Source: a virus. Taken from it: a DNA stretch of 64,000 nt. The stretch lies in the IMG/VR virus record IMGVR_UViG_3300045257_000207, positions 1 to 64,000 of that record, one strand, 5' to 3'. The notes below the pieces were generated by a model. That model searched no databases, was not told the origin of the DNA, and saw nothing but the letters and a program-made list of their open reading frames with translations. A program made the position numbers and the translations under genes. Positions within the stretch are counted from its first letter, which is position 1. Every line of letters begins with the position of its first letter. Shown here piece after piece: positions 26,284 to 43,954 of the stretch.

Positions 26284-27657
26284 ATGAATTCGATCTTTGT
26301 ACAGATGGCCAGCTATCGTGATCCTCAACTTATTCCAACACTCCAGAATTTGATCAGTCAAGCCGAACATCCAAAGAATTTGAGAATTGTTGTCTGTTGG
26401 CAACATGGGGATGATGAATCCACAGAAGATTTTCTAGGTGCGGATTTCGATATCCAAGGGTATCGCACGTCAGAAGGAAATGATCCGCGTGATATCATTG
26501 AGGCCATCCACAAAGGTGCCATCGTTGAACTTATCGATGTGCCACATTTCGATTCACAAGGAGCATGCTGGGCACGTAATAAAATTCAGCAATGCTACAA
26601 TGGAGAGAAATACACTCTTCAACTTGACTCACATCATCGTTTCGTTAAGCATTGGGATACAAAGGTTATCGAAATGTTGGAGAGTGTACGCTATAAAAGC
26701 AAGAAGCCGGTCTTGACCGCCTACATTCCAAGCTTTGATCCGGAAAATGATCCACAGGGTCGCGTCACGGTGCCGTGGAAAATGGACTTTGATCGATTCA
26801 TCCCGGAAGGGGCAGTTTTCTTTATGCCAGCATCTATTGATGACTGGAAAGAAAGAAAAGAACCGATGCGAGCTAGGTTTTATTCTGGACATTTCGCATT
26901 CGCGGACGGCTCCTTTGCCGTAGAAGTGCAACACGATCCCGACTACTTTTTCCATGGAGAAGAAATCTCCATCGGCGTCCGGGCCTTTACACACGGATAC
27001 GATCTTTATCATCCAATAGGGTTGATAGCATGGCACGAATACACACGAAAGGGTCGTACCAAGGTTTGGGATGATCACACAACACCAGAAAAGAAGAACG
27101 GTAAAATCAAGCTCGACTGGGTGGAACGTAATAACCTGTGTCATCGTAGAAACCGAATCTTGTTCGGAATGGACGGTGAAGACCCACGTCAAATAGAATT
27201 CGGCAAATACGGCTTCGGAACGGAACGAACGTTACAAGAATTTGAACGGTTTGCCGGGATGTCATTCAAATACCGTGCCGTACAACAGTACACCATAGAT
27301 AAAAAGGAACCCGTCTATCCGGTGGAAAACGTGTATGATACAGAACAGGCTTGGCGTGACAGCATGACAACTTCGAATGATGTACGAATATGCTTCCACA
27401 CCAATCATCTAAAACATCCAAAACTGGACAAGATTCCATCAGACTTTGATTTTTGGTATGTGGCGGCACACGACGCAGATGGCGAAATCTTCCGCAAAGA
27501 CCCAGTGGAAACAGAAATCAAAAATATGATGCAGCACGATTGGATCGACTACCGTTTGATTTTTCTATCAAATCGACGCCCGACCAAGTTCGTGGTTTGG
27601 CCACATAGCAAAACTGTCGATTGGGGAGAACGATTCGAAATCCCGATCAAGGATTGA
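26284..27657 (+). CDS. Glycosyltransferase, GlcNAc-transferase (PF11397-type) family
   Basis: 457 residues. The N-terminal domain follows the family: IFVQMASYRDPQLIPTLQNL at the start, then GACWARNKIQQCYNGEKYTLQLDSHHRF..HWD near residues 85-120, where DSH is the metal-binding triad in place of DxD. Members include UDP-GlcNAc:polypeptide transferases. The C-terminal 120 residues are less clear. It is a single-gene unit: a terminator lies just before it and another just after. Acceptor and sugar are unknown; a phage virion protein, a host surface glycan or modified DNA are all possible. Confidence 0.8.
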   Translation: MNSIFVQMASYRDPQLIPTLQNLISQAEHPKNLRIVVCWQHGDDESTEDFLGADFDIQGYRTSEGNDPRDIIEAIHKGAIVELIDVPHFDSQGACWARNKIQQCYNGEKYTLQLDSHHRFVKHWDTKVIEMLESVRYKSKKPVLTAYIPSFDPENDPQGRVTVPWKMDFDRFIPEGAVFFMPASIDDWKERKEPMRARFYSGHFAFADGSFAVEVQHDPDYFFHGEEISIGVRAFTHGYDLYHPIGLIAWHEYTRKGRTKVWDDHTTPEKKNGKIKLDWVERNNLCHRRNRILFGMDGEDPRQIEFGKYGFGTERTLQEFERFAGMSFKYRAVQQYTIDKKEPVYPVENVYDTEQAWRDSMTTSNDVRICFHTNHLKHPKLDKIPSDFDFWYVAAHDADGEIFRKDPVETEIKNMMQHDWIDYRLIFLSNRRPTKFVVWPHSKTVDWGERFEIPIKD

Positions 27658-27684
27658 AAAGGCCCCCGTAAATCGGGGGCTTTT
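27657..27684 (+). terminator. Hairpin terminator
   Basis: AAAAGGCCCCCG / CGGGGGCTTTT around TAAAT, immediately after the glycosyltransferase stop. Confidence 0.9.
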
Positions 27685-27688
27685 CTTG

Positions 27689-27696
27689 CATAAATA
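27689..27696 (+). promoter_or_regulatory. Late promoter box CATAAATA (carbamoyltransferase unit)
   Basis: Seven of eight late-box positions, just after a terminator and 24 bases before the ATG, so the carbamoyltransferase and the next gene form an independent late unit. Confidence 0.65.
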
Positions 27697-27720
27697 CAGA
27701 TACCTCAAAAGGCACAGTCA

Positions 27721-30027
27721 ATGTCACGTTCCGATGAATTAATCATCTCTGCATACGGTTCACACAATGCCACGATTAGCATGTTTTACAAAGGCAAATA
27801 TACCGTTGTAGAGGTAGAACGTTGGCTTAATAGAAAGAACGCTGGCCTCGCCAATTACAACCCAGTCCAGAACATCCAACTCGTATTCGATCAAATTTGT
27901 GATTATCTGTTCGGATTGACAGATAGGAGCGAAGCAGATGTTTACATTTCCGGATACATGGGACAATACAAGCCGAAGTTCTTTTATAAGAAGCACCTGT
28001 CATGTGATCATCACATGGCACACGCAGCGACCGCATTTTACCAGTCGCCATACAAAGAAGCCTTGATCTATACCTATGACGGCGGCGGAGATAGTTCTTA
28101 CTTCAATGTGTATCTCGCAGACAAGAACGGTATTAACTTAACCCACAAACACAATCTCGATCTGGGATTTCCTTATATGATCTTGGCCCATTATCTGGCA
28201 GATATCAAGAAAGAAGTTCTCACGGTCGGTAATCTCGTGTATGCCGGTAAACTGATGGGGCTTTGTTCTTACGGAAAGGTCAATCAAGAATGGCTCCCAC
28301 ATTTTGAAACGTTCTACGAGAAATTTCGCTATACGGGAGATGCGTATGCTGGTGGAGCAGAAAAGGCACGAGTGGCAGTTCCTGCTCTGTTCAAGTCAAT
28401 CGGTGTCGAGTTTGACGATGCCAATTCACGTTATGAGGGTCAAGTAGCGTGGGACATTGCAGCCACAACACAAGCAGCATTTGAAAACGTTTTCCTCAAA
28501 TATGCAACAAGAACGCTGGAGGAATTTCAGAATCTTCCAGTATGTCTAGCGGGTGGTTGTGCATTGAACGTTCTCTTGAATACGAAACTCTTAGAGATGC
28601 GAAGCGGGAACGTGTTCATTCCTCCGAATACAAACGATTGCGGTATTTCTGTTGGGGCGCTAATGTGGTATTTGGCTCCATCTAGCCAAGTCGATTTGAC
28701 ATATTCCGGTCTTCCTGTGCTTGATGCTGACAGATTGTCAGAGTACATTGAAGATGGCGACTTTCAAGTGGTAAGGGATGTCACATTAACGGAACTTGCG
28801 ATATATCTCAACGAAGGTCATATCGTTGGTATCATTGAAGGAGATTCAGAACACGGAAGCCGCGCACTTGGTCATCGAAGTATCCTATGTGATCCGGTTG
28901 CTGGCATGAAGGACACACTGAACAAAAAAGTCAAGGATCGTGAATGGTATCGTCCGTTCGCTCCCATGGTTAGATTGGAAGACGCGAATACATACTTCCA
29001 TTTTGAACGAGGCGAATCGCGTCACATGACTTTCGTCGGAACCGTCAGGGACGAATGGAAAAGCACTCTGCCAGCTATTACGCATGAAGACGGAACCGGA
29101 CGACTACAAACAGTCACACGCGCCCAGAACGAGTTCATCTACGACTTGTTGGGAGAGTTTGAGAAACAGTCTGGACATGCTGTCTTGTTGAACACCTCTT
29201 TCAATGTCAACGGTAAACCTATCTTAACGAGATTGTCTGATGCCTTCGAAATGCTCAAAAAGACGAAATTGGATGCAGTCTATTATCAAAACAATCTGAT
29301 CTTCAGAGGGCGCGAGGCTAGTAGTTTCATTTCCATACGCGAAGGTTCTCCTGAAACCGAAACTGGGACTGCGGACGTGCATAAAGTGGACTTCAATGTC
29401 TTCGTTTTTGAAACCCCGCAGACGGTAATGGATAAATGCTACCGCGCCATGGCGTTGCATTTGAAATCCAAAGGAATCGTCCCACATTTCATGACAGATG
29501 CAGTGAACGCTGCAATACTTGAGAAAGCTTTGAAAGATGTTCCACATAGTATAGAAATCGTAGGCGAACCTCGTCACTATTACAAAAACTTGACCATGAT
29601 CCCAGACGCCGCATCTACAAGGGATCATTCACAATTGTTAAGACTTCTGTGGGCCAAGGAATCAGTTCGCGACCGAGCTATGGTCGGCATGCAGCAAATT
29701 TTCGTGAATGGCCCAATGGTTCAGACTGAAAAAATCGATCAACTGCTTGAAGATGTAGAAAATCATGTGCGAAGTGAACGTGATACCGTATTCATCCAGA
29801 AACAACCAGCGAAATCTGCTCGTAAATCCAGAGCGTTTCATCATAAATTGCCAGCCTTTCGTCTCGTGCCAAGTATCATGTACGGGAGCCGAGATGCGGT
29901 AGTCTGGGCGTTCGACTATTACGAAGCCATCATGATGGGGTATTTAAAGGATGGAGTGCAAATGGTAGAAGAAGACTATCTCACGGCGGCTTTCGTAGAT
30001 CATCCGACAAGGTTCAAACTGATATGA
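27721..30027 (+). CDS. NodU/TobZ-type O-carbamoyltransferase with C-terminal extension
   Basis: 768 residues. The family landmarks are all present: DHHMAHAATAFYQSP near 95, YDGGGDSS near 120, LAGGCALNV near 275 with PPNTNDCGISVG, GDSEHGSRALGHRS near 373, REWYRPFAPM, and LLNTSFNVNGKPI near 488. Such enzymes make carbamoyl-AMP from carbamoyl phosphate and ATP and pass the carbamoyl group to a hydroxyl on a sugar or similar acceptor. Residues about 555-768 form an extra domain I do not recognise. It overlaps the two-domain glycosyltransferase by four bases, so the carbamoyl acceptor is probably that enzyme's product. Phage members have also been tied to DNA base hypermodification. Confidence 0.9.
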   Translation: MSRSDELIISAYGSHNATISMFYKGKYTVVEVERWLNRKNAGLANYNPVQNIQLVFDQICDYLFGLTDRSEADVYISGYMGQYKPKFFYKKHLSCDHHMAHAATAFYQSPYKEALIYTYDGGGDSSYFNVYLADKNGINLTHKHNLDLGFPYMILAHYLADIKKEVLTVGNLVYAGKLMGLCSYGKVNQEWLPHFETFYEKFRYTGDAYAGGAEKARVAVPALFKSIGVEFDDANSRYEGQVAWDIAATTQAAFENVFLKYATRTLEEFQNLPVCLAGGCALNVLLNTKLLEMRSGNVFIPPNTNDCGISVGALMWYLAPSSQVDLTYSGLPVLDADRLSEYIEDGDFQVVRDVTLTELAIYLNEGHIVGIIEGDSEHGSRALGHRSILCDPVAGMKDTLNKKVKDREWYRPFAPMVRLEDANTYFHFERGESRHMTFVGTVRDEWKSTLPAITHEDGTGRLQTVTRAQNEFIYDLLGEFEKQSGHAVLLNTSFNVNGKPILTRLSDAFEMLKKTKLDAVYYQNNLIFRGREASSFISIREGSPETETGTADVHKVDFNVFVFETPQTVMDKCYRAMALHLKSKGIVPHFMTDAVNAAILEKALKDVPHSIEIVGEPRHYYKNLTMIPDAASTRDHSQLLRLLWAKESVRDRAMVGMQQIFVNGPMVQTEKIDQLLEDVENHVRSERDTVFIQKQPAKSARKSRAFHHKLPAFRLVPSIMYGSRDAVVWAFDYYEAIMMGYLKDGVQMVEEDYLTAAFVDHPTRFKLI

Positions 30028-31685
30028 ACAAAAGCAATCTAACTATCGTGACCGGTCTCTTTGATATAGGACGTGGCAATATTTCCGATTCTTTCAAGCG
30101 ATCATTTGATCACTACCTCGAATCATTTAAAAGCTTCTTGGAAGCCACGAAAGACCATCAACTTCTAGTGTATATCGAAGCAAAAAACGAACACGTGGTT
30201 TGGGAAACGCGCAATCGAACGAACACTGTCGTGGTCGTAAAAGAACTTGACTATCTACGTTCCTTTCCATTTTATTCTCAGGTTCAAACCATTCGTCAAA
30301 ATCCTGAATGGTACGGGCAGGCCGGTTGGCTGCAAGAAAGTCCGCAGGCTACACTGGAACTATACAATCCACTTGTCATGATGAAGCAATTCATGCTTAA
30401 TGATGCTTCACTGATGAACCATTTTGATTCCAAATATTTCCTGTGGATGGATGCTGGATTGACCAATACTGTCAACCTGTCGCAATACCTCGATGCAAAC
30501 TTCGAACGTAGAGTCACTTCCAAAATGAAAAAAATGCTCTATCTATGTTTTCCATATGACGGAACCGTAGAAGTTCACGGCTTCAAGAAATCGGAGATGA
30601 ATCGTTACGCCGGAAAAGAAACAACATATGTCGCCAGAGGTGGTTGTTTTGGAGGATCAAAAGACAGCATCAATCGCATCAATGAGGTGTACTACAGCTT
30701 GTTGAATGCCACCTTATCCAGTGGATTGATGGGCACCGAGGAAAGTCTCTTTACACTGATGACATATCGCAACATGGAAATATGTCACACGCACATGATC
30801 GAACCGAATGGCTTAGTGTATAAGTTCTTCGAAGATATCAAGGCAATTCCAGTCAAACAAAACATGGCAGAAGAAGTCGCAATTTACGCATTGACATTCA
30901 ACACCCCAGAACAGTTCAGTCTGTTTGCCAAATCATTGAAGGACGCATACCCAAAGGCGTACAAGACTTACAAGAAATACGTTATCAACAATTCAAATAA
31001 TGATGCTGTAAACGTTCCATACGCACAACTATTTGAAGATCATGGGTTCACAGAATTCAAATTTGACAATATCGGAATCAATAATGGTAGACAATTCGCG
31101 GCAGAACACTTCGACCAATCTGACCATGAATACATGATCTTTTTTGAGGATGACATGCTTTTACACCCAGAGGAACCGAGTGTACGCTGCAAAAATGGAT
31201 ATTCCGGGTGGCAACCGGGACTGTTAGAGAAGGCGATCCACATTGTTCAATCCGAAGAGTTGGACTATTTGAAACTTAGCTTCAGTGAGTTTTTCGGATC
31301 AAATGAACAAAACTGGGCGTGGTTCAACATCCCGGACGACGCTCGTCGTGCCGAGTATTTTCCAGCGTCCAATAGTGAAGAAGAGGCACTTCGCAAGTTT
31401 ACGAAGATTTCGTACATTTCAGCATATCGTGGACTACCGTTTGCGGTTGGTCAGTTCCATTATTGTAATTGGCCACTTGTGTTCAGTAAGACCGGAAACA
31501 AGAAAGTCTTTCTCGATACAAAGTGGGAACATATGTACGAACAGACGCTGATGAGCAACACCATGCGATTGATGCATGAGGGCAAGATGAAGGTTGGTTG
31601 TCTTCTAGCTTCGCCTATCAACCATTTCCGCAAATATCACTATGCAAAGGGCACGCGCCGAGAGAATAAACACTACAAAAACTAA
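30024..31685 (+). CDS. Two-domain glycosyltransferase: HtrL/YibB-like plus GT-A-like
   Basis: 553 residues. Residues 1 to about 285 follow the HtrL/YibB pattern: TIVTGLFDIGRGN at the start, YFLWMDAGLTN near 140, and GGCFGGSKDSI near 210. Residues about 290-553 are a second transferase-like domain, with TFNTPEQF, INNSNN, GINNGRQFAAEHF and FFEDDMLLHPE near 375, whose EDD resembles a metal-binding DxD. The start overlaps the carbamoyltransferase stop (ATGA), so they are made together. Likely adds two sugar units to one acceptor; the sugars are unknown. Confidence 0.75.
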   Translation: MNKSNLTIVTGLFDIGRGNISDSFKRSFDHYLESFKSFLEATKDHQLLVYIEAKNEHVVWETRNRTNTVVVVKELDYLRSFPFYSQVQTIRQNPEWYGQAGWLQESPQATLELYNPLVMMKQFMLNDASLMNHFDSKYFLWMDAGLTNTVNLSQYLDANFERRVTSKMKKMLYLCFPYDGTVEVHGFKKSEMNRYAGKETTYVARGGCFGGSKDSINRINEVYYSLLNATLSSGLMGTEESLFTLMTYRNMEICHTHMIEPNGLVYKFFEDIKAIPVKQNMAEEVAIYALTFNTPEQFSLFAKSLKDAYPKAYKTYKKYVINNSNNDAVNVPYAQLFEDHGFTEFKFDNIGINNGRQFAAEHFDQSDHEYMIFFEDDMLLHPEEPSVRCKNGYSGWQPGLLEKAIHIVQSEELDYLKLSFSEFFGSNEQNWAWFNIPDDARRAEYFPASNSEEEALRKFTKISYISAYRGLPFAVGQFHYCNWPLVFSKTGNKKVFLDTKWEHMYEQTLMSNTMRLMHEGKMKVGCLLASPINHFRKYHYAKGTRRENKHYKN

Positions 31686-33752: not shown

Positions 33753-34646
33753 ATGAGCAGCATCATCAAGAAACTCAACAAAATGGAACTCCTCACTACA
33801 CCGCCAGCGTGTGTAATTGAGCCAGAGTTTGAGGTTATTATGGGCAGTACGGCCTATGGCGTCACTGGGTCTTCAAGTGATGTTGACGTTTATTCGGTCT
33901 GCATTCCTCCTGTCGAAGAGGTGTTCACCCACATGAACGGTATGGTTCCGGGTTTCGGCCCGAAGCCTAGCGTGTTCAAGACGTGGCAGCAGCATCACAT
34001 CAAGACCGAGGCTGGAACCGTTCAGGAGAAGGAATACGACCTGTGTTCATATTCCATGGTTGAATTCTTCAATCTTGCTGCCGAAAACAATCCGAACATC
34101 ATCGATTCCTTGTTCGTTCCTGACAGGTGCATCACCCATGTTACGGAAGTTGGCAAGGTCATGCGGGAGAGTCGTCGTCTGTTCCTTCATAAAGGTGCGT
34201 ATCACAAGTTTAAGGGTTATGCGTACTCGCAACTGTCCAAAATCAAGACCCGCAAACCGGTGGGAAAACGTGCCGAGTTGGTTGAAAAGTTCGGATACGA
34301 TGTCAAGTTCGCTTACCATGTTGTTCGTCTTGCTCAAGAATGTGAACAAATCTTGATGGAAGGCGACCTCGACCTAGAACGTTGCCGTGAAATGCTGAAG
34401 GTCATCCGCAAGGGTGAATGGACGCTGGAACAGCTTGAGGAATGGTTCCGTAACAAGGAACTCATGCTTGACCAGTTGTACATCGACAGCAAGCTACAAC
34501 ACAAGCCAGATTACGCCAAACTAAATCGTTTGTTGATGGTCTGCTTGGAGAGTAAATTTGGGTCGCTTGACAATCTAATGAAAGGCGGAGTTGACCAGAA
34601 AGCCTTGCGCAACTACGAAAAGATTGTTAGAATCATCCAAGGTTGA
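33753..34646 (+). CDS. Predicted nucleotidyltransferase (RlaP/YcgL-like)
   Basis: 297 residues. The nucleotidyltransferase core motif is clear near residues 30-46: IMGSTAYGVTGSSSDVDVYSV, that is GS followed by DxD on the next strand. The remainder is helical and ends with a region rich in acidic and Leu residues. Members of this group (PF10127-type) sit beside RNA ligases and repair genes and are thought to add nucleotides to RNA ends or other acceptors. The substrate is unknown. It has a ribosome site (AAGGA) and its own terminator. Confidence 0.82.
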   Translation: MSSIIKKLNKMELLTTPPACVIEPEFEVIMGSTAYGVTGSSSDVDVYSVCIPPVEEVFTHMNGMVPGFGPKPSVFKTWQQHHIKTEAGTVQEKEYDLCSYSMVEFFNLAAENNPNIIDSLFVPDRCITHVTEVGKVMRESRRLFLHKGAYHKFKGYAYSQLSKIKTRKPVGKRAELVEKFGYDVKFAYHVVRLAQECEQILMEGDLDLERCREMLKVIRKGEWTLEQLEEWFRNKELMLDQLYIDSKLQHKPDYAKLNRLLMVCLESKFGSLDNLMKGGVDQKALRNYEKIVRIIQG

Positions 34647-34647
34647 G

Positions 34648-34675
34648 AAAAGGGCGACCTAAAGTCGCCCTTTTT
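34648..34675 (+). terminator. Hairpin terminator
   Basis: AAAAGGGCGAC / GTCGCCCTTTTT around CTAAA, directly after the nucleotidyltransferase stop and 16 bases before the next start. Confidence 0.9.
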
Positions 34676-34690
34676 CTTTGGAGATTCTGT

Positions 34691-35815
34691 ATGGCATGTA
34701 ATTGTATGGGGCCGCAAAACGGCGACCCACTTTGTCCTTGCATGATGGGTAATAGATTCCGATTCCCCCCGGTGGACTTTGATAGCCACCTTTTATGGCG
34801 ACACCCGGCTCCGGATGCCGCACCGCCATCGAGTATTGGGCCATCTAAAACCTATTTCGCTTCACCTACCCTACCCTACATTTCACTTCCAACTGTCGAA
34901 GAACTTGCGCTGTTGACCAAACATCGCCAAGTCAAGAACAATCCGGATTATATCTTGATGGACTTCGATCAGAAGTTGGAACTCGTGTTAAGAACAGGTA
35001 GCAACATGATCGACCGTACCGGCGTAGGTGTTCGCTATTTGCCGGGGATTTCCACCACCATGGATATATCGTCTCGCATTCCTATTCCAACACGTCGCAA
35101 GACGAATTGGAAGAGTATGTTGAAGGAGTATTTGTGGTTCTTGACAGGTTCAGACAATATCAACGATCTAAACAAAATGGGATCGAAAGTTTGGGATTTC
35201 TGGAAGGATGACAAATTCACAGAAGCGGGTGGCTTCGATAACGGCTCCATCGGGTATGGATATGGCCCTAACCTCATCCACTACGGTGGTGACCTCAAGG
35301 ACTTAGAAAACAACCCCGGCGTCAACCAAATAGAATACGTGCTGAACGAACTACGCACCAATCCATTCTCCCGTCGCATCTTGTTCACCTTTTGGCGTCC
35401 AGACAAGATAGGCAAGTTGGACTGTAAGCTCCCACCATGCCACCACACCTATCAGTTCGTCGTAGAACCGGATGAAACAGGTGAGATGACCCTACTATCG
35501 TGTGTCATGTACGCTCGCTCCACAGACGCGTTTGTGGGCGCTCTGGCGACCAACCTACAAGGTGCAGCCTTCTACACTCATATGATCGCCCAGCAAGTAG
35601 GCATGACTCCGAACACTTTAACTTTCTGTTCAGGCCACTTCCACATATATAACAATCATATCCCCCTCGTTGAAGAGTACCTAGCGAGACCGATAGTTCC
35701 GTCGCCGATTCTTAAACTCAACAAGGCTGCATCAATCTATGACTATGTTCCCGATGATTTTACGTTATCTGAATATGAACCATTACCCGCAATGCGCGTT
35801 CCTATCGCGGTGTAA
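34691..35815 (+). CDS. Thymidylate synthase-family enzyme with Cys-rich N-terminal extension
   Basis: 374 residues; start chosen at the ATG after GGAG and the terminator, giving MACNCMGPQNGDPLCPC. The extension of about 90 residues carries C3, C5, C15 and C17 and then a Pro-rich part. The synthase domain has DRTGVG, LKEYLWFLTGSDNINDL, FSRRILFTFWRP, the catalytic LPPCHH (C250), RSTDAF and HFHIYNNH. N288 in ATN aligns with the Asn that selects uracil over cytosine, so the substrate should be dUMP. The product may be dTMP or 5-hydroxymethyl-dUMP; the usual PFN context is altered and one residue is inserted, so the activity needs testing. Confidence 0.85.
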   Translation: MACNCMGPQNGDPLCPCMMGNRFRFPPVDFDSHLLWRHPAPDAAPPSSIGPSKTYFASPTLPYISLPTVEELALLTKHRQVKNNPDYILMDFDQKLELVLRTGSNMIDRTGVGVRYLPGISTTMDISSRIPIPTRRKTNWKSMLKEYLWFLTGSDNINDLNKMGSKVWDFWKDDKFTEAGGFDNGSIGYGYGPNLIHYGGDLKDLENNPGVNQIEYVLNELRTNPFSRRILFTFWRPDKIGKLDCKLPPCHHTYQFVVEPDETGEMTLLSCVMYARSTDAFVGALATNLQGAAFYTHMIAQQVGMTPNTLTFCSGHFHIYNNHIPLVEEYLARPIVPSPILKLNKAASIYDYVPDDFTLSEYEPLPAMRVPIAV

Positions 35816-36033: not shown

Positions 36034-37089
36034 TCAGTGAGGGGCTAACTCTGTCAACGGATAGGTTTTCTCTATAAGTGATTGATCCAAATAGAAATCT
36101 CCGTTGTGATACGTGAAATACCCGTTCGTCATATCCACAAGTTCACCCAAATCGATCAATTGATCCCGCGTCTTGTCAGACGTTTGGTATGGGGCTTTAG
36201 AAAGTAATATGAAAAGACCCTCTGGCGCAATAGGGGTCTTGATTCCGGTACCGTAATCTACGCGAGTAAACCGTAGTTGCGTGCCTTCTGGAATATCATC
36301 GAACACCAACTGACTATCATTGAATGTGGTGAACTTGAGGACATTTTTGTTTCTGGTGTAGTAGTTGCGTCTCTTACGAATCAAAATCTCATCCCACCCA
36401 GCCCATGCAGTTACTTCTTGCAGCATCGGCAACGATTCAAAACAGACCAACGCTTCTTCGTTCGGTTTCTGGATACTTACTTCGATTTGGATAGAATCGA
36501 AGTAATTTGCCAAGTCCATGGGCAATGGGAGAGGAGAACCGCTGAATGTGGTTTTGGTAATGTACTTAGGAAGAGCGAAAACGAAGGTGCCATTTGTGGT
36601 CACTTGTACCGATGCGAATAGTGGAGAAATGAACTTCGGCTTTAGAGCTACAGAAGTACGAGCAACACAGTGCGCCACACCGTATGCCTGTCGGTTCAAG
36701 ACGATAGAAACGGTATTTTGATCAACGATTGAAACCGAATAATCTTCTGGAGACACCTTCGAAGGATAGACTTTATTTGTCGGAGAAACCAAATATTCAA
36801 AAACTGAAATAGCTGGAGATACACCTAAATTGTGAGGTACAACCCATTCCGTAGCGGGAGACGGTTGAACAAAGTTGAAAAACGAACGACGTTGTTCATA
36901 ATTCTGAAAACGAGGATCGAACTTCGGGAAGGATTCACGGATACTGTCACGATTACGCTTCGTTTTATATAGTTTTCCGATGCAACCTTTAGTAATGATA
37001 CACGAAGATACGATATCAAGACCTTTGGCATTTTCCAATACCTCTATATTTCGCTTACAGAGGTTGCACTTGTATGAATTGGTTGCCAT
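36034..37089 (-). CDS. Putative virion protein with N-terminal zinc-ribbon-like motif
   Basis: 351 residues. The first 45 residues hold CNLCKRN, a later C and GC, a possible zinc knuckle. Residues about 68-90 read FNFVQPSPATEWVVPHNLG, the W-V-HNLG motif typical of phage fibre and virion attachment domains; the remainder is beta-rich. No enzyme motif is visible. A reverse-strand late box lies upstream. A structural role, perhaps a head or tail decoration, is the best guess. Confidence 0.6.
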   Translation of the reverse strand: MATNSYKCNLCKRNIEVLENAKGLDIVSSCIITKGCIGKLYKTKRNRDSIRESFPKFDPRFQNYEQRRSFFNFVQPSPATEWVVPHNLGVSPAISVFEYLVSPTNKVYPSKVSPEDYSVSIVDQNTVSIVLNRQAYGVAHCVARTSVALKPKFISPLFASVQVTTNGTFVFALPKYITKTTFSGSPLPLPMDLANYFDSIQIEVSIQKPNEEALVCFESLPMLQEVTAWAGWDEILIRKRRNYYTRNKNVLKFTTFNDSQLVFDDIPEGTQLRFTRVDYGTGIKTPIAPEGLFILLSKAPYQTSDKTRDQLIDLGELVDMTNGYFTYHNGDFYLDQSLIEKTYPLTELAPH

Positions 37090-37172: not shown

Positions 37173-37454
37173 TCAAGGTCGCTTTTCTACCGAATTCAAC
37201 ATTGAAATCAGATCATTCGCAATGGCAATCTGTTGGGTTGCGAAGAAGACCGGCCCGCGTTCGATTTCGTTGATAATGTACGAAAAATCATTCTGGGCAG
37301 CATAAAGCACTGTGCCCTTCACGTTTTTTGTATCATTGGTACGATGCCGATAAGCGTCACATGCTTCTTTGAACTTATGCGAAAGGAACTGTACGCTCTG
37401 GCGGATTTGATCACTGTTCAGTGACTTACTGTTGCTGCTGTTAACGTTGCTCAT
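37173..37454 (-). CDS. Unassigned small protein
   Basis: 93 residues, polar and helical, with a Ser/Asn-rich start and no cysteines except one, no membrane segment. It has a consensus-like sigma70 promoter 58 bases upstream and a clear terminator behind, so it is a self-contained early-type transcription unit. The ribosome site is weak. Family not recognised; small early proteins in phages often target host functions, but nothing in the sequence says so here. Confidence 0.6.
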   Translation of the reverse strand: MSNVNSSNSKSLNSDQIRQSVQFLSHKFKEACDAYRHRTNDTKNVKGTVLYAAQNDFSYIINEIERGPVFFATQQIAIANDLISMLNSVEKRP

Positions 37455-37511: not shown

Positions 37512-37540
37512 ATTCTACTCGTACCCATTTTACGTGTCAA
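37512..37540 (-). promoter_or_regulatory. Sigma70-type promoter (reverse)
   Basis: Reverse strand reads TTGACA, 17-base spacer, TAGAAT. Six of six and five of six matches. It points at the small gene ending at 37173 and separates it from the glycan operon, whose last stop it overlaps. Confidence 0.65.
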
Positions 37541-38234
37541 CAGTTTTCCAATTATTTGATATTATCGGGTGAGTTATGTTATGCGGTTTCGGTATCCCGT
37601 GAAAGCAAATGACACTAGCCCCGTTGGGGATGCCAACGATTTCTCTGGGGTTACGATTCCTGCAACAATGTTTCTTGAAAGACACGAACTTACGCGGAAA
37701 GAGAGTTTGAAACCTATCATATTCCCCACCAAGACACTGCTTAATCCACGTTTGATCGCCGGTAGGAGTATTACGCATCACACTGGTCGGGTCTTCCATG
37801 AACTTCTGATAGATGAAGTCATACTCTCCACCGACAAATTTCATAATTCCGCTCCCAAGATTTTCTGCCACATAAAAGTCTTCAAGAGCCACCAACCGGG
37901 TTGTATTCTTTTCAAAAACGAAGTCTAAACTATTAACAATTACCGTATCAAGATCGAGGAAAAATATGTTACAACGAGCGAAGGTTGGCTGGTTGAACAA
38001 CTCCATCTTGCTCCACCAGCCGGGTAAATCATCTTTCAGTGGGATCACTTTATCGACAGACGTATCGAACGCCTGTGTAGTATCTGTTAAGCAGACGAAT
38101 TCGTAGAGGATGTTAGTTAAATGACGCTTACAAGCCAATGCCAAAACATTAACGTATTCAACATCATAGGTACTACCACCAGTTTTAAGAACACAGACGA
38201 CTAGATTTTTTTGTGTTATGAAATTTTGCGACAT
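37530..38234 (-). CDS. Glycosyltransferase, GT8-like
   Basis: 234 residues. The start LVVCVLKTGGSTYDVEYVNVL is followed by NIFFLDLDTVIV near residue 90, where DLD is the metal-binding DxD of GT-A enzymes, then GDQTWIKQCL and a final CFHGIPKPH, the His-Gly-x-x-K/P pattern near the C-terminus of GT8-like enzymes. It is the last gene of the reverse-strand glycan operon and overlaps the PglD-like gene by 19 bases. Donor and acceptor are unknown. Confidence 0.78.
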   Translation of the reverse strand: MSQNFITQKNLVVCVLKTGGSTYDVEYVNVLALACKRHLTNILYEFVCLTDTTQAFDTSVDKVIPLKDDLPGWWSKMELFNQPTFARCNIFFLDLDTVIVNSLDFVFEKNTTRLVALEDFYVAENLGSGIMKFVGGEYDFIYQKFMEDPTSVMRNTPTGDQTWIKQCLGGEYDRFQTLFPRKFVSFKKHCCRNRNPREIVGIPNGASVICFHGIPKPHNITHPIISNNWKTVDT

Positions 38235-38803
38235 GGTGTTCCGATATATGTCCCCCGCTCGTGAATATTCTTAACTACTCCGGCATTCAATCCAATCGTT
38301 ACATCATCGCAGATAACAAGTTTTTCTTTAGCACACGAGTTCGTCCCGAAATACACGCGATGCCCGATATCACAATTCCCGGAAATGGCGACATGTGGTG
38401 CTGTGGTGAAAAAATCGCCTATAACACAATCATGTCCGATAGTGGTCTGTAGGTTCAGATGAGCATGTTTACCGATGATAATGTTGGTGGTCAGTATCGA
38501 CCCAGCACAAACGATTGAACCTTCCCCGAGAATTAAATCGTCTAGGACGATAACACTGGGGTGAATGAACGTATCAAAAATAGTGTTCGGTGGTAACCTG
38601 TTGACCATAGCTTGGCGTTTGGCAGGATCACCAATTGCCACCAAAACCTTACAGGACGTGACATCTAAGGATGACAGTGGTTTGGCATCATCGGTGCAAT
38701 ATTCGTCGTCTACATAGAACTCTATGACTCCTGCAACATGATATTTCATGTGGTGGAACACTTCACGTCCGAACCCTCCGGCTCCAATAATTGCATGTTT
38801 CAT
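38216..38803 (-). CDS. PglD-like sugar O/N-acyltransferase
   Basis: 195 residues from the ATG after AAGGAAAGG; the frame extends 12 codons upstream but overlaps the previous gene. The N-terminal Rossmann-like part (KHAIIGAGGFGREV) binds the nucleotide sugar in this family. The left-handed beta-helix follows with hexapeptide repeats; GHDCVIGD holds H124, the catalytic base in PglD, and the end reads GTYIGTPCRKI. The enzyme likely acylates an amino sugar made by the DegT enzyme two genes upstream. Four-base overlap with the gene before it. Confidence 0.88.
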   Translation of the reverse strand: MKHAIIGAGGFGREVFHHMKYHVAGVIEFYVDDEYCTDDAKPLSSLDVTSCKVLVAIGDPAKRQAMVNRLPPNTIFDTFIHPSVIVLDDLILGEGSIVCAGSILTTNIIIGKHAHLNLQTTIGHDCVIGDFFTTAPHVAISGNCDIGHRVYFGTNSCAKEKLVICDDVTIGLNAGVVKNIHERGTYIGTPCRKIS

Positions 38804-40728
38804 GCGACCTTTCCTTTGTTGGTGATCGTTGCGTGCCACGGTCTACTGTTGACTTCACAGTATACATCCAACGCGGCCCCAATATCTAGTTGAGTTACTT
38901 TATCTTGATACGTCTTGTGGAATTTGTCGATCAATACCTTGGCAACAAAAGAACAGGCATAAAGTACGACCGGTTTATCGAGTTCATCGATTAATAGTTT
39001 CGTTCTAGCGTGAATTTCATCGAAATGATTCCACACGGCATCAGGATGAGTTACGACCAACCTAAGAGGAAAATGTTTGTTCAATTTTGACATATATGCT
39101 GGCCCAACGATGATCACGTTGCGACCTTTCAATAGTTCAAAAACCTTCAATAGTGATCCATCGATAGACATTTTGGCGAAAAGTCCACCATCAAAGACCT
39201 GCAATTTTGACATATATGGTAGAATTTGTTCCATCATATACGGCTTTTTCATAACTTCCGAAGAGATTCCGATAGGGTAGTCAATTGTCGATTGAATGAT
39301 CGGCATTATATTGGCATCTACAAATTTCTGCCCAGACTCTTTCCATTTTGGAAAATGAACATCATATAGTCCATTAGCTTTGATTTTCAGTGCAGCAATC
39401 CATTCGCCATCATTGTAACGTGCCAGTGAAAATGGGGTCTGTGTTTCAAGATTAGTGAAAATGAATTGGTAAATATCAGGTTCGATAATCGAGACTTCAC
39501 GGCCTATCATTGGGGACGTGCAAGCGGGCTTTAGACGAAAAATAGTGCTTTCGTGGTCGTACTCTGGACATACTGTCCTGTAGTTGTTCATGCTCCGTCT
39601 ACTATTAATCTCATCTACAAAATCGAAAATTTTCTGCTGCTGATTTTGATATGAAAATACCTGTACTGAGTGATCTTGGATTTTTTGTGACATTGACAAT
39701 AGCAAATCCCGATCATCATATAATGTTTTTATGTGTTTAACGATTTGATTGTAACCCTCTGAAGGTATGATTTGCAACATATCTTCTGTGTATTGGAAAT
39801 GCTTGTTCGCTCGGTGAACATCGGTCGTAAGTAGTACGACGCCCTGTAGTGCTGCTTCTATTCCTAATGGCCAACCATTGAGTGCCGCTCCATTTTCTAC
39901 GTTGATTAGAATGTCTATTTTCTCATGGTAGAAGGAGTCAAGATCAGATTGTGACATCGGTTTTAGGAATGTCATTGGGAGCAAAGATTTGGTTAAACCT
40001 GCGGTGCTTCCGATGAAGACGAATTCGATATCATCGTTCGGGTGAAGTTTTTTGTATGTCTCAGCAACGGTTGCATATGAATTGCTGCCTTTATGAACAC
40101 CTTGTCCCATAGTGGCAAAACAAACTCGTAACGTTTTATCATTGCGACGTTTTCTTGATATAGTGTGGTGTTGGGGGAGCAAACTGCTACCGTATACATT
40201 AACGTAACTTTTTATGCCGTGTTGTCGCACGTCAAATGTGCAAAATGGCTGAGTACATACAACATTAATGTTCTTCGGAAGATCGACTAACGATTTGGGA
40301 CTGGAGTATCCTCCGCCCGGATACAGGTGAATTATTTGCTTCTCAGGAGGCGCTCTAAACTCCGCCTTAAATCTGTTATACGATGAAAGGAAGATGTGGT
40401 AGATGGTATCGTATTGTCCAATATTGAAAGTTTCCGACAACGTGTACATGTAACTTTGGCTACATTTATGATTGAACCTCATACCGTTGATTTTGGTGTT
40501 GTATTTGTTTAGATAATTGTATCGCGGGTCAAAAATCAAAATGTTGTATCGATCAAGACCATAATATTCTCTCATGATATCATGATCAACCTCATAGCTC
40601 ACTCCGGCAAAGTAATCGACTTTGCTCACTAAAATATCGGCGTCCCCTGCATCGATAAATGCCTTTATCTCTTCAATGCGCCATTTGGCGTATTTGGAAG
40701 GAAACAGAACATCATTGATCAAGATCAT
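38800..40728 (-). CDS. Fusion: GT4-like glycosyltransferase plus GT-D-like domain
   Basis: 642 residues. Residues 1 to about 390 look like a GT-B (GT4-type) enzyme: LYPGGGYSS, FATMGQGVHKGSN, FVFIGSTAGL, then ENGAALNGWPLGIEAAL..VLLTTDVH as the donor-binding E-x7-E region. Residues about 425-642 carry FSLARYNDGEW and, at the end, QLDIGAALDVY..SRPWH, which match the single-domain GT-D-like protein encoded at 41738-42499. A linker rich in Asn and Arg separates the two. Start and stop overlap both neighbours by four bases. Probably adds two successive sugars. Confidence 0.78.
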   Translation of the reverse strand: MILINDVLFPSKYAKWRIEEIKAFIDAGDADILVSKVDYFAGVSYEVDHDIMREYYGLDRYNILIFDPRYNYLNKYNTKINGMRFNHKCSQSYMYTLSETFNIGQYDTIYHIFLSSYNRFKAEFRAPPEKQIIHLYPGGGYSSPKSLVDLPKNINVVCTQPFCTFDVRQHGIKSYVNVYGSSLLPQHHTISRKRRNDKTLRVCFATMGQGVHKGSNSYATVAETYKKLHPNDDIEFVFIGSTAGLTKSLLPMTFLKPMSQSDLDSFYHEKIDILINVENGAALNGWPLGIEAALQGVVLLTTDVHRANKHFQYTEDMLQIIPSEGYNQIVKHIKTLYDDRDLLLSMSQKIQDHSVQVFSYQNQQQKIFDFVDEINSRRSMNNYRTVCPEYDHESTIFRLKPACTSPMIGREVSIIEPDIYQFIFTNLETQTPFSLARYNDGEWIAALKIKANGLYDVHFPKWKESGQKFVDANIMPIIQSTIDYPIGISSEVMKKPYMMEQILPYMSKLQVFDGGLFAKMSIDGSLLKVFELLKGRNVIIVGPAYMSKLNKHFPLRLVVTHPDAVWNHFDEIHARTKLLIDELDKPVVLYACSFVAKVLIDKFHKTYQDKVTQLDIGAALDVYCEVNSRPWHATITNKGKVA

Positions 40729-41729
40729 AAATTGTTCTTGTCAATGGCAGCACATATAAATAAAATCTCATCGCACGTCATGTCTTCATTTAAAGGAAAA
40801 TTGATGATACGATCATACAGATTCTTTGAGTTGGGGAAATCGGCTAGCGGATTGTAATATTTGTTGGCCTCTATTCCGAGATTTCTAAAGACTGAAGGTT
40901 CGATAGGATTCTTGAAAACGACAGGAATATTGCCGTAGAACACATTAGAACTATCATTGAATAGCTCAGCATTTGTCAAACTATGTCTGAACAAGTCTTG
41001 ATGGGCTTGATGCCGATCCAGATCATAGCTTTCTAGGTGTTGCAGAATGTACGCAGCGGCGACATCAGACATTTTGTAGTTCGATGCTGCTACATCATGA
41101 GTTCTGGCACCTAAACGGAACCCGAACCCGCACAGAGCTTGCATATCGTCATACATGGTATCGTCAACAACCATGAAGCCGCCTTCACCGAAACCGAGAA
41201 ATTTGGTATGATGTAATGAGCCAAATGACGCGTCCCCTAAGAGGCAAATGTTAATACCATCCTCGGTTTTGCTCATAAATGATGATGCGTTGTCATAGAT
41301 GACGATTTTATCAGGAAATTGACTTACGTCAAAATCTACCACGGAGCCGAACAAATTTGTGATGATGATACCATCCGCATCTTGAATAGCGGTAGCATGT
41401 AACGTATATGTTGTTGGATCAATATCCACAACACGCGTATTTGAATGGTTCATCAAACAGCTTGGGAAGGTAAATGATGGAGTAACCCATCTTAACGTTC
41501 TGCAATTGAGCTTATCGTAATAGGCTATCAAAGCATGTAGAGCGATTGTCCCGTTAGCTACGCACAAGACACGTTTGTTTGCCGGAAGGCATATCATCTG
41601 TCCGATTTTATCTTCCAATAATGCCTTTACTGGCCCGGCATTAGTGTAATGGTTTTTGCTTTCGCATATGGCTAGAAGTTCGTTAATACGAACGTGATTT
41701 ATGGACTTGCGCTGAATATACGGAATCAT
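40725..41729 (-). CDS. DegT/DnrJ/EryC1-type sugar aminotransferase
   Basis: 334 residues. Family landmarks: YTNAGPVKALLEDKIG at the start, VANGTIALHAL, DIDPTTYTL, IYDNASSF (D146 contacts the PLP ring), and SLHHTKFLGFGEGGF with K176 as the Schiff-base lysine. Such PLP enzymes convert keto-sugar nucleotides to amino sugars. No sugar dehydratase is in the window, so the keto substrate would have to come from the host or from genes outside. AAGGTG precedes the ATG. Together with the acyltransferase it suggests an N-acylated amino deoxysugar. Confidence 0.88.
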   Translation of the reverse strand: MIPYIQRKSINHVRINELLAICESKNHYTNAGPVKALLEDKIGQMICLPANKRVLCVANGTIALHALIAYYDKLNCRTLRWVTPSFTFPSCLMNHSNTRVVDIDPTTYTLHATAIQDADGIIITNLFGSVVDFDVSQFPDKIVIYDNASSFMSKTEDGINICLLGDASFGSLHHTKFLGFGEGGFMVVDDTMYDDMQALCGFGFRLGARTHDVAASNYKMSDVAAAYILQHLESYDLDRHQAHQDLFRHSLTNAELFNDSSNVFYGNIPVVFKNPIEPSVFRNLGIEANKYYNPLADFPNSKNLYDRIINFPLNEDMTCDEILFICAAIDKNNL

Positions 41730-41737
41730 AAATCACC

Positions 41738-42499
41738 TTATTGGATGTGATATTTATCATTCTGATTTCGTATTAGACAGTAATCTTGCTCTGATCCGGG
41801 GGAAAACCACGGTCTCGTGCATAATCCGGCCCAACCATCTAGAGTTGCTCCAAAATCGATGGCGATCTTCCTGTATGATTTCATTATGACGCCTATATCC
41901 TTCCCGTAAAGACTTGCTCCAAACAAGACAATATCGTCTTGGATCAATTTCAAAGAATCCAGCATCGTTTCGCGGTGATTGTCAATTTGTGTGTAGGTAA
42001 CATGAGTCTCTAATAGGCGTTCTATTTCATTATTTTGTAGCTGTTCTACGTTTGGTGATATGATATTAACCGACCTACCCTGTAACAGTTGTTTGAAACT
42101 GTGAATGTCTCCGAAAAGTCTATTACGGGTTATTTGGTGATCACATACCAACACGGCAGCGTTCTTGATCTTATCCATCGGAAGCGACCATTTTCGCTCA
42201 TCGTATTTGAGCTTTTTGCATATGATGTTATTTGGATCGAGTAGTCCAATGATATCTGAATCCAAAGCAGAAGCCAAAATATTACAAATGTCAGTTCTGA
42301 CTTTATCGAAATCTCCGGGCCATGCGTAATTCCACAACTGACAGACTTTCTGTTGTAATGCTATGGGCACATTATTGTTCAGAAAAAAGATTTCAGCATC
42401 ACCGAAACGTGTTAAGCAAAACGGCGTTAGTGTTCTAATTCTCTCATGAATTATTTTATAAACGTCATGGTCTGATACGGATGGTATGAGATACTTCAT
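41738..42499 (-). CDS. GT-D-like glycosyltransferase
   Basis: 253 residues. TPFCLTRFGDAEIFFL (residues 25-40) with D34-x-E36 and the closing AIDFGATLDGWAGLCTRPWF match the signature of the GT-D fold (formerly DUF1792), in which a D-x-E motif binds the metal. It is clearly related to the C-terminal domain of the 642-residue fusion two genes downstream. The start overlaps the pyruvyltransferase stop (ATGA). Donor unknown. Confidence 0.72.
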   Translation of the reverse strand: MKYLIPSVSDHDVYKIIHERIRTLTPFCLTRFGDAEIFFLNNNVPIALQQKVCQLWNYAWPGDFDKVRTDICNILASALDSDIIGLLDPNNIICKKLKYDERKWSLPMDKIKNAAVLVCDHQITRNRLFGDIHSFKQLLQGRSVNIISPNVEQLQNNEIERLLETHVTYTQIDNHRETMLDSLKLIQDDIVLFGASLYGKDIGVIMKSYRKIAIDFGATLDGWAGLCTRPWFSPGSEQDYCLIRNQNDKYHIQ

Positions 42500-43269
42500 A
42501 TTTTTACAGGAAAGGCTCGCAGAAGTTTCATGTCGTCGAATTTATCCGGGAGGAAATAGTTCAATTTGATTAATTCATCGAGAGATAGTTTATTATGTAT
42601 TTGAACAAAGGATTGTTTGGCGTTCTGAGATGCGAAATAGTCGTGGAATTTTATATCATCACCTGATAACTTTTCATCAAATTTAACCCATGTAGCGGGA
42701 ATGTTGTATGCATGTGCAACGATAAGGCCATGGAGGGAGCTACTAACAATACGCTCGCATTCGAGCATCTGATCGATGACTTGTGTTACATCTTGATTAA
42801 TGGTCGAAATGACCTTTACCTCGCCCTCGGGATACCAAGGCGAAACCTGATTGAAATTGACATAATGAGGTATGATTCCTACTTTGTACTTTTTCGATAT
42901 CGACGGGGTATACACTCTAGGAAGTAACAGAGCGGGGTCGCCGAAAATATGAGGGCATCGTATACCACGAGCCTTAAGGATTTCATATGTCAATGGGCCT
43001 CGCACTGCAAGATAGGTCGAATGTAGAGATGCTATGGTGGACTGACTCATACAACCAGACCCCCACACCGTTGTCCTTGGAGTGGTTTTCTCGATAATGC
43101 TCCCTATGCCTAGCAAGACTTTGCTAGGGTTATCGATAAGAGGGGTGTGTCGTGCGGTATACTTGAATAGACGTTTAATCAGCCACGGGGTTAATATGTC
43201 ACCAAAGTTGCCCGGTAATGGCGTTCTTGACCACCATACATTAATGATTTTGTTGTTGCTATCAATCAT
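42496..43269 (-). CDS. Polysaccharide pyruvyl transferase
   Basis: 257 residues from ATG at 43269; the frame extends to a TTG at 43320 inside the preceding gene, which is less likely. Features of the family are NVWWSRTPLPGNFGDILTPWLI at the start, VRGPLTYEILK near 100, HIFGDPALLLP, and CERIVSSSLHGLIVAHAYNIPATWV near 200. These enzymes transfer pyruvate from phosphoenolpyruvate to sugar hydroxyls as ketals, adding negative charge to surface glycans. It lies 14 bases after the MAF-like gene. Confidence 0.85.
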   Translation of the reverse strand: MIDSNNKIINVWWSRTPLPGNFGDILTPWLIKRLFKYTARHTPLIDNPSKVLLGIGSIIEKTTPRTTVWGSGCMSQSTIASLHSTYLAVRGPLTYEILKARGIRCPHIFGDPALLLPRVYTPSISKKYKVGIIPHYVNFNQVSPWYPEGEVKVISTINQDVTQVIDQMLECERIVSSSLHGLIVAHAYNIPATWVKFDEKLSGDDIKFHDYFASQNAKQSFVQIHNKLSLDELIKLNYFLPDKFDDMKLLRAFPVKI

Positions 43270-43283
43270 CTTGTCTGGCAACC

Positions 43284-43931
43284 TTATAGGTACTTCTCTA
43301 CTACTATTTTTGGGAAGCAAAGTAACCGACTTTCAATCGAACAGTTAATGACTTCGATATTTCTATCTGCCAACGGTTTAGCCATCGACTCGATGCATGG
43401 TATGAAACTGTTGGTGTAAATATCTCGGTGAACCGGTAAAGTTTGTAAATCGTGCCAATGGCTCTTTTTGTTGATATGACACATGTCGAATCCAAGCAAG
43501 AGGATACGTTTAGGTTTCATATTTGCAATCAAATTCAACGCATGCGCTCCACTATTGTTCCCATGCACGTTGTCTCTGTTGTCGTCTAATCCAAATATAC
43601 CGGTACGTCTAAGGTAAGTACATCCAACGATTCCTTTACTGTGCGCTAACATAGCATCTGTTACATTGAATCTTGCCATAAATCGACGTTTACATGGATG
43701 TCGAACTAGGTTATCATAGTTCTGTGCTGCCCACGGCTCATCACACCAATACAACACACTCGCATTAGGTAATTTCAGATATGCAGAATTGATCGCTACT
43801 GTCACTTTATCATGGAGCAGACCGAAGTCGAAATTGGTGAGACTAGAACCACCTCCAACGATGAACACGTCCTGTTGGAAGGTCAGCTTGAACAGTTTTT
43901 CAATTTCTTCACGCATCGACATGGCTCTCAT
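43284..43931 (-). CDS. MAF/DUF115- or GT42-like glycosyltransferase-type protein
   Basis: 215 residues, first gene of the glycan operon. VFIVGGGSSLTNFDFGLLHDK near residue 22, VAINSAYLKLP, LYWCDEPWAAQNY and NSGAHALNLIANM...ILLLGFDM follow the pattern of phage and bacterial MAF/DUF115 proteins and are reminiscent of sialyltransferase family GT42. Related proteins transfer nonulosonic acids to flagellin, so a transferase role is plausible. An AGAGG site lies 11 bases before the ATG. Exact activity cannot be told. Confidence 0.65.
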   Translation of the reverse strand: MRAMSMREEIEKLFKLTFQQDVFIVGGGSSLTNFDFGLLHDKVTVAINSAYLKLPNASVLYWCDEPWAAQNYDNLVRHPCKRRFMARFNVTDAMLAHSKGIVGCTYLRRTGIFGLDDNRDNVHGNNSGAHALNLIANMKPKRILLLGFDMCHINKKSHWHDLQTLPVHRDIYTNSFIPCIESMAKPLADRNIEVINCSIESRLLCFPKIVVEKYL

Positions 43932-43954
43932 AAATAATCACACCTCTATTTAGA
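43929..43954. promoter_or_regulatory. Divergent late-type boxes
   Basis: CATAAATA at 43929-43936 points forward to the gene at 43963; TCTAAATA (reverse complement of 43947-43954) points back to the glycan operon. The latter leaves a leader of only about ten bases, so it is less certain. Confidence 0.45.

What the first reader, a model, noticed from the sequence alone, without database searches (positions are those of the whole stretch)
37530..43931. Seven-gene phage glycan operon with amino-, acyl- and pyruvyl-transfer
Overlapping reverse-strand genes encode a MAF/GT42-like protein, pyruvyl transferase, GT-D, DegT aminotransferase, GT4+GT-D fusion, PglD-like acyltransferase and GT8-like enzyme. 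Four of the junctions are ATGA-type or longer overlaps. Family knowledge says DegT plus PglD makes an acylated amino sugar; pyruvyl transferase adds acidic ketals. No dehydratase is present. Inference: the phage builds and charges a decorated glycan, on its own virion or on the host surface (for example to block superinfection). The set inside a T4-like genome is unusual.
Basis: partly seen in the sequence, partly recalled or inferred. Interest (0 to 1): 0.78.

Follow-up and report, generated by a model that had tools for sequence, protein, structure and literature searches.

The report
Phage viosamine-type glycan operon
This large bacterial virus carries enzymes predicted to make and attach an unusual decorated sugar (an acylated viosamine, probably with pyruvate on the glycan), using an aminotransferase type that is found almost only in viruses and that the giant amoeba virus mimivirus uses to build the sugar coat of its own particle.

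Summary
All seven genes and four overlaps are real. The 'operon' is two joined modules. (1) The outer pair, a sialyltransferase-fold (MAF-like) protein and a GT8-like glycosyltransferase, is an old phage cassette: homologues are P1 PmgO/PmgQ, and in jumbo phages XacN1 and RAS14/CM1 it lies between ribonucleotide reductase and a fibre-like protein, as here. (2) The inner block PvT–GT-D–DegT–GT4/GT-D–NeuD recurs in related phage contigs, three of which hold the cassette separately. The aminotransferase's best solved relative is mimivirus L136 (viosamine synthase); the acyltransferase's is VioB. Other phages place this aminotransferase beside a dTDP-viosamine formyltransferase or dTDP-glucose dehydratase. 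Predicted product: nucleotide-linked N-acyl-viosamine from a ketosugar that host RmlB can supply, explaining the missing dehydratase. The aminotransferase motif occurs in 82 viral contigs but 2 prokaryote contigs. Active-site motifs are intact, no protein looks membrane-bound, and a T4-late-like promoter precedes the operon. Likeliest target: virion proteins (XacN1 virions carry glycoproteins); host-surface modification remains possible. Phage glycan clusters are known; the viosamine–pyruvate toolkit shared with mimivirus was not found described in the open papers searched.

The parts
43284..43931 (-). MAF/PmgO-like protein, sialyltransferase (GT42/GT29)-like fold, 215 aa; first gene of the unit
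   Evidence: phrog_4603 7.8e-36; 45.8% to XacN1 ORF375, 26% to P1 PmgO; model pLDDT 94.7; Cst-I TM 0.55, MptE-type HPPK E 6e-4
42496..43269 (-). polysaccharide pyruvyl transferase (PvT); earliest frame start is TTG 43320, likely start ATG 43269
   Evidence: PF04230 57.1 bits; 61% to L196 homologue, invariant SSLHG motif
41738..42499 (-). GT-D-fold glycosyltransferase
   Evidence: PF22882 40.5 bits; DxE motif at RFGDAE and 62% to L196 homologue
40725..41729 (-). L136/VioA-type nucleotide-sugar 4-aminotransferase (DegT family)
   Evidence: PF01041 89.3 bits; mimivirus L136 161 bits against 40 for the next protein; HHTK Lys176 aligns with the residue altered in the 7mfp chain; phage clade 99/99
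38800..40728 (-). GT4-like + GT-D fusion glycosyltransferase, 642 aa
   Evidence: weak Pfam; same fusion at 45-57% identity in L196, L197, L199, L200, YNDGE invariant
38216..38803 (-). VioB/NeuD/PglD-type sugar N-acyltransferase; likely start ATG 38803 (ATGA overlap)
   Evidence: TIGR03570 156 bits; VioB 7txp 103 bits, best solved match; GHD His136
37530..38234 (-). GT8-like (PmgQ-type) glycosyltransferase, last of the seven
   Evidence: phrog_1962 3.8e-42; profile hits Skp1 galactosyltransferase 6e-9 and glycogenin; invariant DLD and HG.P
37173..37454 (-). small ORF between the operon and the fibre-like gene, function unknown
   Evidence: ORF only
36034..37089 (-). fibre-like virion-type protein, candidate acceptor
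   Evidence: 38-42% to N-termini of XacN1 ORF370/372 and RAS14 protein 604, each downstream of the cassette; 37 strong IMG/VR relatives; model shares a ~75-residue domain with phage fibre and tropism-determinant proteins
43947..43954 (-). T4-late-like promoter element TCTAAATA upstream of the first gene
   Evidence: the same kind of element lies at -32 in XacN1 and -28 in L016

Best explanation
It is a composite phage glycosylation locus. Shown by sequence: an inherited MAF(PmgO)...GT8(PmgQ) cassette beside a fibre-like gene, with a recurrent five-gene block (PvT, GT-D, DegT, GT4/GT-D, NeuD) set inside it. Inferred mechanism: host RmlA/RmlB provide dTDP-4-keto-6-deoxyglucose; the L136/VioA-type aminotransferase makes dTDP-viosamine; the VioB-type enzyme N-acylates it; the glycosyltransferases assemble a short glycan on a protein in the cytoplasm, and the pyruvyl transferase adds an acidic ketal to one of its sugars. 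Most likely acceptor: a virion protein, the adjacent fibre-like protein being the first candidate, late in infection, so that the particle carries a charged sugar coat analogous to mimivirus fibrils. The identity of the sugar is the better supported part (about 0.75); the virion as target is weaker (about 0.55-0.6).
For: L136 and VioB are the best solved relatives. A relative sits beside an equivalog-level dTDP-4-amino-4,6-dideoxyglucose formyltransferase (265 bits, cut-off 238) and others beside RmlB/RmlC/RmlD-type genes. L136 is described as making UDP-Vio4N and accepting UDP- and dTDP-sugars, and the mimivirus cluster also has an N-acetyltransferase, a pyruvyltransferase and several GTs for the fibril glycan. 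The block is conserved in order in other phage contigs with active-site motifs invariant. The cassette lies beside the fibre-like gene in XacN1, RAS14 and several IMG/VR contigs. XacN1 virions contain at least two glycoproteins. No protein of the unit has a membrane-segment-like stretch. A late-type promoter element precedes the first gene here, in XacN1 and in L016. In L197 the DegT-to-NeuD genes directly follow a T4-gp15-type tail gene.
Against: No glycan, activity or expression has been measured. XacN1 lacks the five-gene block as far as the phage collection shows, so its glycoproteins support at most the cassette or another locus. XacN1's glycoproteins are not identified in the text, and the fibre-like protein is not shown to be in any virion. 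The promoter element also precedes the RNR gene, so 'late' is not proved. The 74-kb record is a fragment, so flippases or other partners elsewhere cannot be excluded. The acyl group and the pyruvylated sugar are unknown.
Confidence: 0.55

Rival explanations
1. The locus remodels the host surface (O-antigen, capsule or flagellin) during infection, for example to exclude competing phages; the phage enzymes feed viosamine and pyruvate into host glycans.
For: This is the prevailing reading of sugar clusters in cyanophages, pelagimyophages and jumbo phages. Viosamine occurs on Pseudomonas flagellin and in E. coli O-chains. GT8 and pyruvyl transferases are common in bacterial surface polysaccharide loci (family knowledge).
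Against: No membrane protein, lipid-carrier transferase, flippase or polymerase in the unit; the cassette is tied to a fibre-like gene, and the block in L197 to a tail gene; late-type promoter; a late change of host surface would have little time to act in a lytic infection (inference).
Confidence: 0.27
2. The glycosyltransferases decorate phage DNA (hypermodified cytosine or thymine) with a viosamine-containing glycan against restriction.
For: Phage glycosyltransferases that modify DNA are well known; the window also has a carbamoyltransferase and a thymidylate synthase.
Against: The thymidylate synthase scores as an ordinary one and no hydroxymethylase was identified; carbamoyltransferase best solved relatives act on small molecules such as TobZ; none of the seven proteins matched a known DNA glucosyltransferase family.
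Confidence: 0.06
3. The two modules act separately: the MAF/GT8 pair glycosylates a virion protein, while the five-gene block makes an unrelated glycan for another acceptor and sits here only by chance insertion.
For: The modules lie apart in G003, G004 and G013, and L196 has the block with neither MAF nor GT8 within the 18 kb examined.
Against: All three separated cases are co-inherited in one contig, and in the window the block replaces the tailoring genes (PmgP and TylF methyltransferase) inside the cassette, as a change of sugar would.
Confidence: 0.1

Closest known systems
Mimivirus fibril glycan cluster (R132-L143: L136, L142, L143, R141, GTs)
   Same: L136-type aminotransferase, VioB/NeuD-type N-acyltransferase, pyruvyl transferase and several glycosyltransferases in one cluster; L136 is the best solved match of our DegT
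   Different: No dehydratase or methyltransferase here; different GT families; bacterial host; the acceptor is not the fibril protein; one compact transcription unit
P1 pmgO-pmgP-ppp-pmgQ / P7 hdm genes and the XacN1 ORF375-374-373 cassette
   Same: Homologous outer genes in the same order; XacN1 also shares the RNR neighbour and the fibre-like downstream gene
   Different: P1 has a phosphatase, and XacN1 a PmgP-like protein and a TylF methyltransferase domain, where our phage has the five-gene block. P1 pmgO/P/Q are reported nonessential, function unknown
Bacterial viosamine (vio) genes, e.g. Pseudomonas syringae vioA/vioB for flagellin
   Same: Aminotransferase plus VioB-type acyltransferase making an N-acylated viosamine for a glycoprotein
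   Different: Our aminotransferase belongs to a mainly viral branch and no flagellin is involved
'LPS' gene clusters of cyanophages, pelagimyophages and other jumbo phages
   Same: Nucleotide-sugar enzymes and several GTs in T4-superfamily phages
   Different: Those are proposed to change the host surface; here the set is compact, viosamine-type, tied to a fibre-like gene and without membrane components

Membership tests
DegT/DnrJ/EryC1/StrS aminotransferase | Family profile above cut-off and PLP-binding lysine | tested here: met
   89.3 bits vs 19.8; Lys176 in HHTK aligns with the L136 lysine that is changed in 7mfp
Viosamine synthase (L136/VioA type) | Closest characterised relative is a viosamine synthase | tested here: met
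   L136 161 bits, next protein 40 bits
Viosamine synthase (L136/VioA type) | Genomic partners act on dTDP-viosamine or its precursor | tested here: met
   VioB-type partner here; dTDP-4-amino-4,6-dideoxyglucose formyltransferase 265 bits (cut-off 238) beside the L003 relative and RmlB-type genes beside others
Viosamine synthase (L136/VioA type) | Converts 4-keto-6-deoxyglucose to viosamine | not testable with these tools
   needs enzyme assay
NeuD/PglB/VioB acyltransferase | TIGR03570 above cut-off; catalytic histidine | tested here: inconclusive
   156.0 bits vs 160.8, 5 bits short; PglD_N and Hexapep above cut-off; GHD His136 conserved
Polysaccharide pyruvyl transferase (PF04230) | Profile above cut-off | tested here: met
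   57.1 vs 25.3 bits
CsaB S-layer pyruvyl transferase | Equivalog TIGR03609 above cut-off | tested here: not met
   25.9 vs 213.1 bits
GT-D glycosyltransferase | PF22882 above cut-off and DxE motif | tested here: met
   40.5 vs 27 bits for 41738-42499; RFGDAE. The narrower NF040628 is not met (27.5 vs 75)
GT8 | Family profile and DxD | tested here: inconclusive
   no Pfam match; profile A1 hits Skp1-GalT and glycogenin; DLD and HG.P invariant
MAF / DUF115 (PF01973) | Profile above cut-off | tested here: not met
   22.3 vs 34.6 bits; the fold resembles Cst-I and MptE-type HPPK: 'MAF-like' only
P1 PmgO/PmgQ cassette | Homology of both outer genes and their linkage | tested here: met
   a MAF/PmgO/PmgP gene lies in 27 of 80 GT8 loci against 0 of 82 DegT loci
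Mimivirus-type fibril glycan cluster | Aminotransferase, N-acyltransferase, pyruvyl transferase and GTs together | tested here: met
Mimivirus-type fibril glycan cluster | Own 4,6-dehydratase | tested here: not met
   none among the seven genes; not sought in the whole phage, whose record is a fragment
Host-surface (lipid-linked) polysaccharide pathway | Membrane initiating transferase, flippase or polymerase in the unit | tested here: not met
   no stretch of 19 residues above mean hydropathy 1.52 in any of the seven

The most novel reading that the evidence does not exclude
A viosamine-type aminotransferase lineage belongs mainly to viruses: tailed phages and mimivirus share it (by gene exchange or common viral ancestry), both pair it with an N-acyltransferase, and in our phage and mimivirus also with a pyruvyl transferase, to put a charged, bacterial-looking sugar coat on their own virions.
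Probability: 0.3. Interest if true: 0.85.

Novelty: new variant of a known kind. Interest (0 to 1): 0.62.

Why it matters
Phage sugar clusters have been set aside as LPS modifiers or filler DNA. This locus gives a chemically specific, testable prediction: N-acyl-viosamine plus pyruvate, made by soluble enzymes and probably put on a virion protein. It links the unexplained P1 pmgO/pmgQ genes, the reported XacN1 virion glycoproteins and the mimivirus fibril toolkit, and it suggests that a branch of sugar aminotransferases circulates mainly among viruses.

Tried and rejected
Single-sequence scans with PvT and DegT, and the two-row DegT alignment, found almost nothing because the chosen peptide patterns were poor; a motif pattern worked. 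CsaB identity for the pyruvyl transferase was rejected. The idea that the motif-bearing contigs are giant-virus contigs was rejected for those with T4 portals; the capsid search had no positive control, so it proves nothing. A classical T4-like identity was rejected. Tree claim that L136 nests inside phage sequences: the full tree places it there (95/78 and 93/57), but an AU test does not reject L136 outside the phages (p 0.34), so it is reported only as suggestive; the virus rows as one clade are not rejected (p 0.505). A 5-carbamoyloxymethylcytosine-type DNA modification was considered because of the carbamoyltransferase (a lead from memory) and not supported. The fold search of the fibre-like protein against PDB found nothing.
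Full report
1. The observation. The window is part of a 74,058-base IMG/VR virus record, a linear fragment. With corrected starts there are three ATGA overlaps and one 19-base overlap. G+C at third positions is lower than in RNR and polymerase (0.41-0.45 vs about 0.54), so part of the set may be a newer arrival.

2. The phage. The DNA polymerase (42-45%) and a glycosyltransferase (58-62%) have their best matches in the jumbo myoviruses Xanthomonas phage XacN1 and Stenotrophomonas phages CM1/RAS14. It is T4-like only in the wide sense.

3. Two modules. The MAF-like and GT8-like proteins are homologues of P1 PmgO and PmgQ. In XacN1 and RAS14 the order is RNR - small gene - MAF - PmgP-like - methyltransferase+GT8 fusion - fibre-like protein; several IMG/VR contigs show the same order or a shortened version of it. 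In RAS14 the MAF match lies in two pieces. In the window the ends of this cassette and its neighbours on both sides are kept, but the middle is replaced by PvT, GT-D, DegT, GT4/GT-D and NeuD. That inner block is found with all five genes in the same order in G001 (57-70% identity), as four genes in G003 and G004, as DegT-GT4/GT-D-GT-D-NeuD in G002, and as GT-D-methyltransferase-PvT-DegT-NeuD in G013. G003, G004 and G013 also carry the MAF/GT8 cassette at a separate place. As a control for linkage, MAF/PmgO/PmgP genes lie in 27 of 80 loci chosen by GT8 but in 0 of 82 loci chosen by DegT.

4. The sugar. Among solved structures the aminotransferase matches mimivirus L136 at 161 bits over nearly its whole length; the next protein scores 40 bits. 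The chain 7mfp, which has alanine at the position of our Lys176, marks the catalytic lysine. The acyltransferase's best solved match is VioB, 103 bits. L136 is described as a viosamine synthase that accepts UDP- and dTDP-sugars, and its cluster makes the fibril glycan with an N-acetyltransferase, a pyruvyltransferase and GTs. Independent support comes from relatives: in the 735-kb phage LR756501 the same aminotransferase type follows, one gene on, a protein above the equivalog cut-off for dTDP-4-amino-4,6-dideoxyglucose formyltransferase, and in T4-superfamily contigs such as L201 it lies beside RmlB-, RmlC- and RmlD-type genes. Hence N-acyl-viosamine is the best reading, and the absent dehydratase is explained if host RmlB provides the keto sugar (inference). 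Which sugar receives pyruvate is unknown; in mimivirus it is GlcNAc.

5. A mainly viral lineage. The motif HHTK..GFGEGG occurs in 82 stretches of IMG/VR and in 2 stretches of a collection with one genome for each of 84,980 prokaryote species; all 82 viral ones are full-length or edge-cut relatives. The motif was taken from viral sequences, so it favours them. An unbiased check in 596 genomes of two phyla gives best cellular scores of 130 and 126 bits, against 548 in phages. In the tree the window falls in a 13-row phage clade (99/99); five cellular rows are nearest outside the viral rows. L136 lies among phage rows, but an AU test does not exclude other placements.

6. The target. For the virion: the cassette's constant neighbour is a fibre-like gene whose model shares a small domain with phage fibre and tropism-determinant proteins; XacN1 virions contain at least two glycoproteins, while its authors counted only ORF328 and ORF334 as glycosyltransferases; the enzymes look soluble. 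A T4-late-like element [AC]TAAATA lies within 60 bases upstream of 19 of 49 genes against 0.66 expected (largest of 2000 draws 5; antisense 3), including gp15, sheath, fibre-like and MAF genes here and MAF in XacN1 and L016; it also precedes RNR. In G002 the DegT-to-NeuD genes follow a T4 gp15-type tail gene. For the host surface: precedent and proposals in the literature. The evidence favours virion proteins but does not decide.

7. MAF-like fold. A confident model (pLDDT 94.7) resembles MptE-type HPPK (E 6e-4) and, with the higher TM-score 0.55, the sialyltransferase Cst-I; human sialyltransferases follow. A sugar-transferase role is inferred from the company it keeps.

8. A second sugar locus. 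Genes at 26284-31685 encode a PF11397 GlcNAc-transferase (259 bits), a TobZ/NolO-type carbamoyltransferase and an HtrL/YibB protein; the first two are adjacent in XacN1 too (ORF334-ORF333). PF11397 is, from family knowledge, the Skp1 GlcNAc-transferase family, and the GT8 profile's best solved match is the Skp1 galactosyltransferase; this hints at protein glycosylation but is only a lead.

9. Novelty. Sugar clusters in T4-superfamily and jumbo phages are known, mostly read as host-surface modifiers. In the open papers searched I found no report of viosamine enzymes in phages or of the link to L136; subscription papers were not searched. I call it a new variant of a known kind.

Noticed in passing
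window 26284-31685 (+): Second glycan locus: PF11397 GlcNAc-transferase (259 bits), NolO/TobZ-type carbamoyltransferase, HtrL_YibB protein; the first two adjacent in XacN1 ORF334-ORF333.
   Followed up: partly
whole window: [AC]TAAATA, like the T4 late promoter, lies within 60 bases upstream of 19 of 49 genes (0.66 expected).
   Followed up: partly
L003 6551-9020: 735-kb phage LR756501 places a dTDP-4-amino-4,6-dideoxyglucose formyltransferase, a GT2-like gene and an L136-type aminotransferase side by side.
   Followed up: partly
L206 10960-12406: NeuB/PseI-type and PseF-type genes near the aminotransferase in a T4-superfamily phage contig: possible phage nonulosonic acid synthesis.
   Followed up: no
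L009 14001-14637: The MAF-like gene of RAS14 (and CM1) matches in two pieces, so it may be frameshifted or mis-sequenced.
   Followed up: no
window 34643-35815 (+): Thymidylate synthase with an N-terminal extension of about 107 residues before the family match.
   Followed up: no
window 61348-62184 (+): Papain-family cysteine protease (PF00112, 28.6 bits); XacN1 has one near its cassette.
   Followed up: no
L010 (P1 pmgO-pmgQ): P1's unexplained, nonessential pmgO/pmgQ genes are homologues of this cassette, which makes P1 a laboratory model for it.
   Followed up: partly
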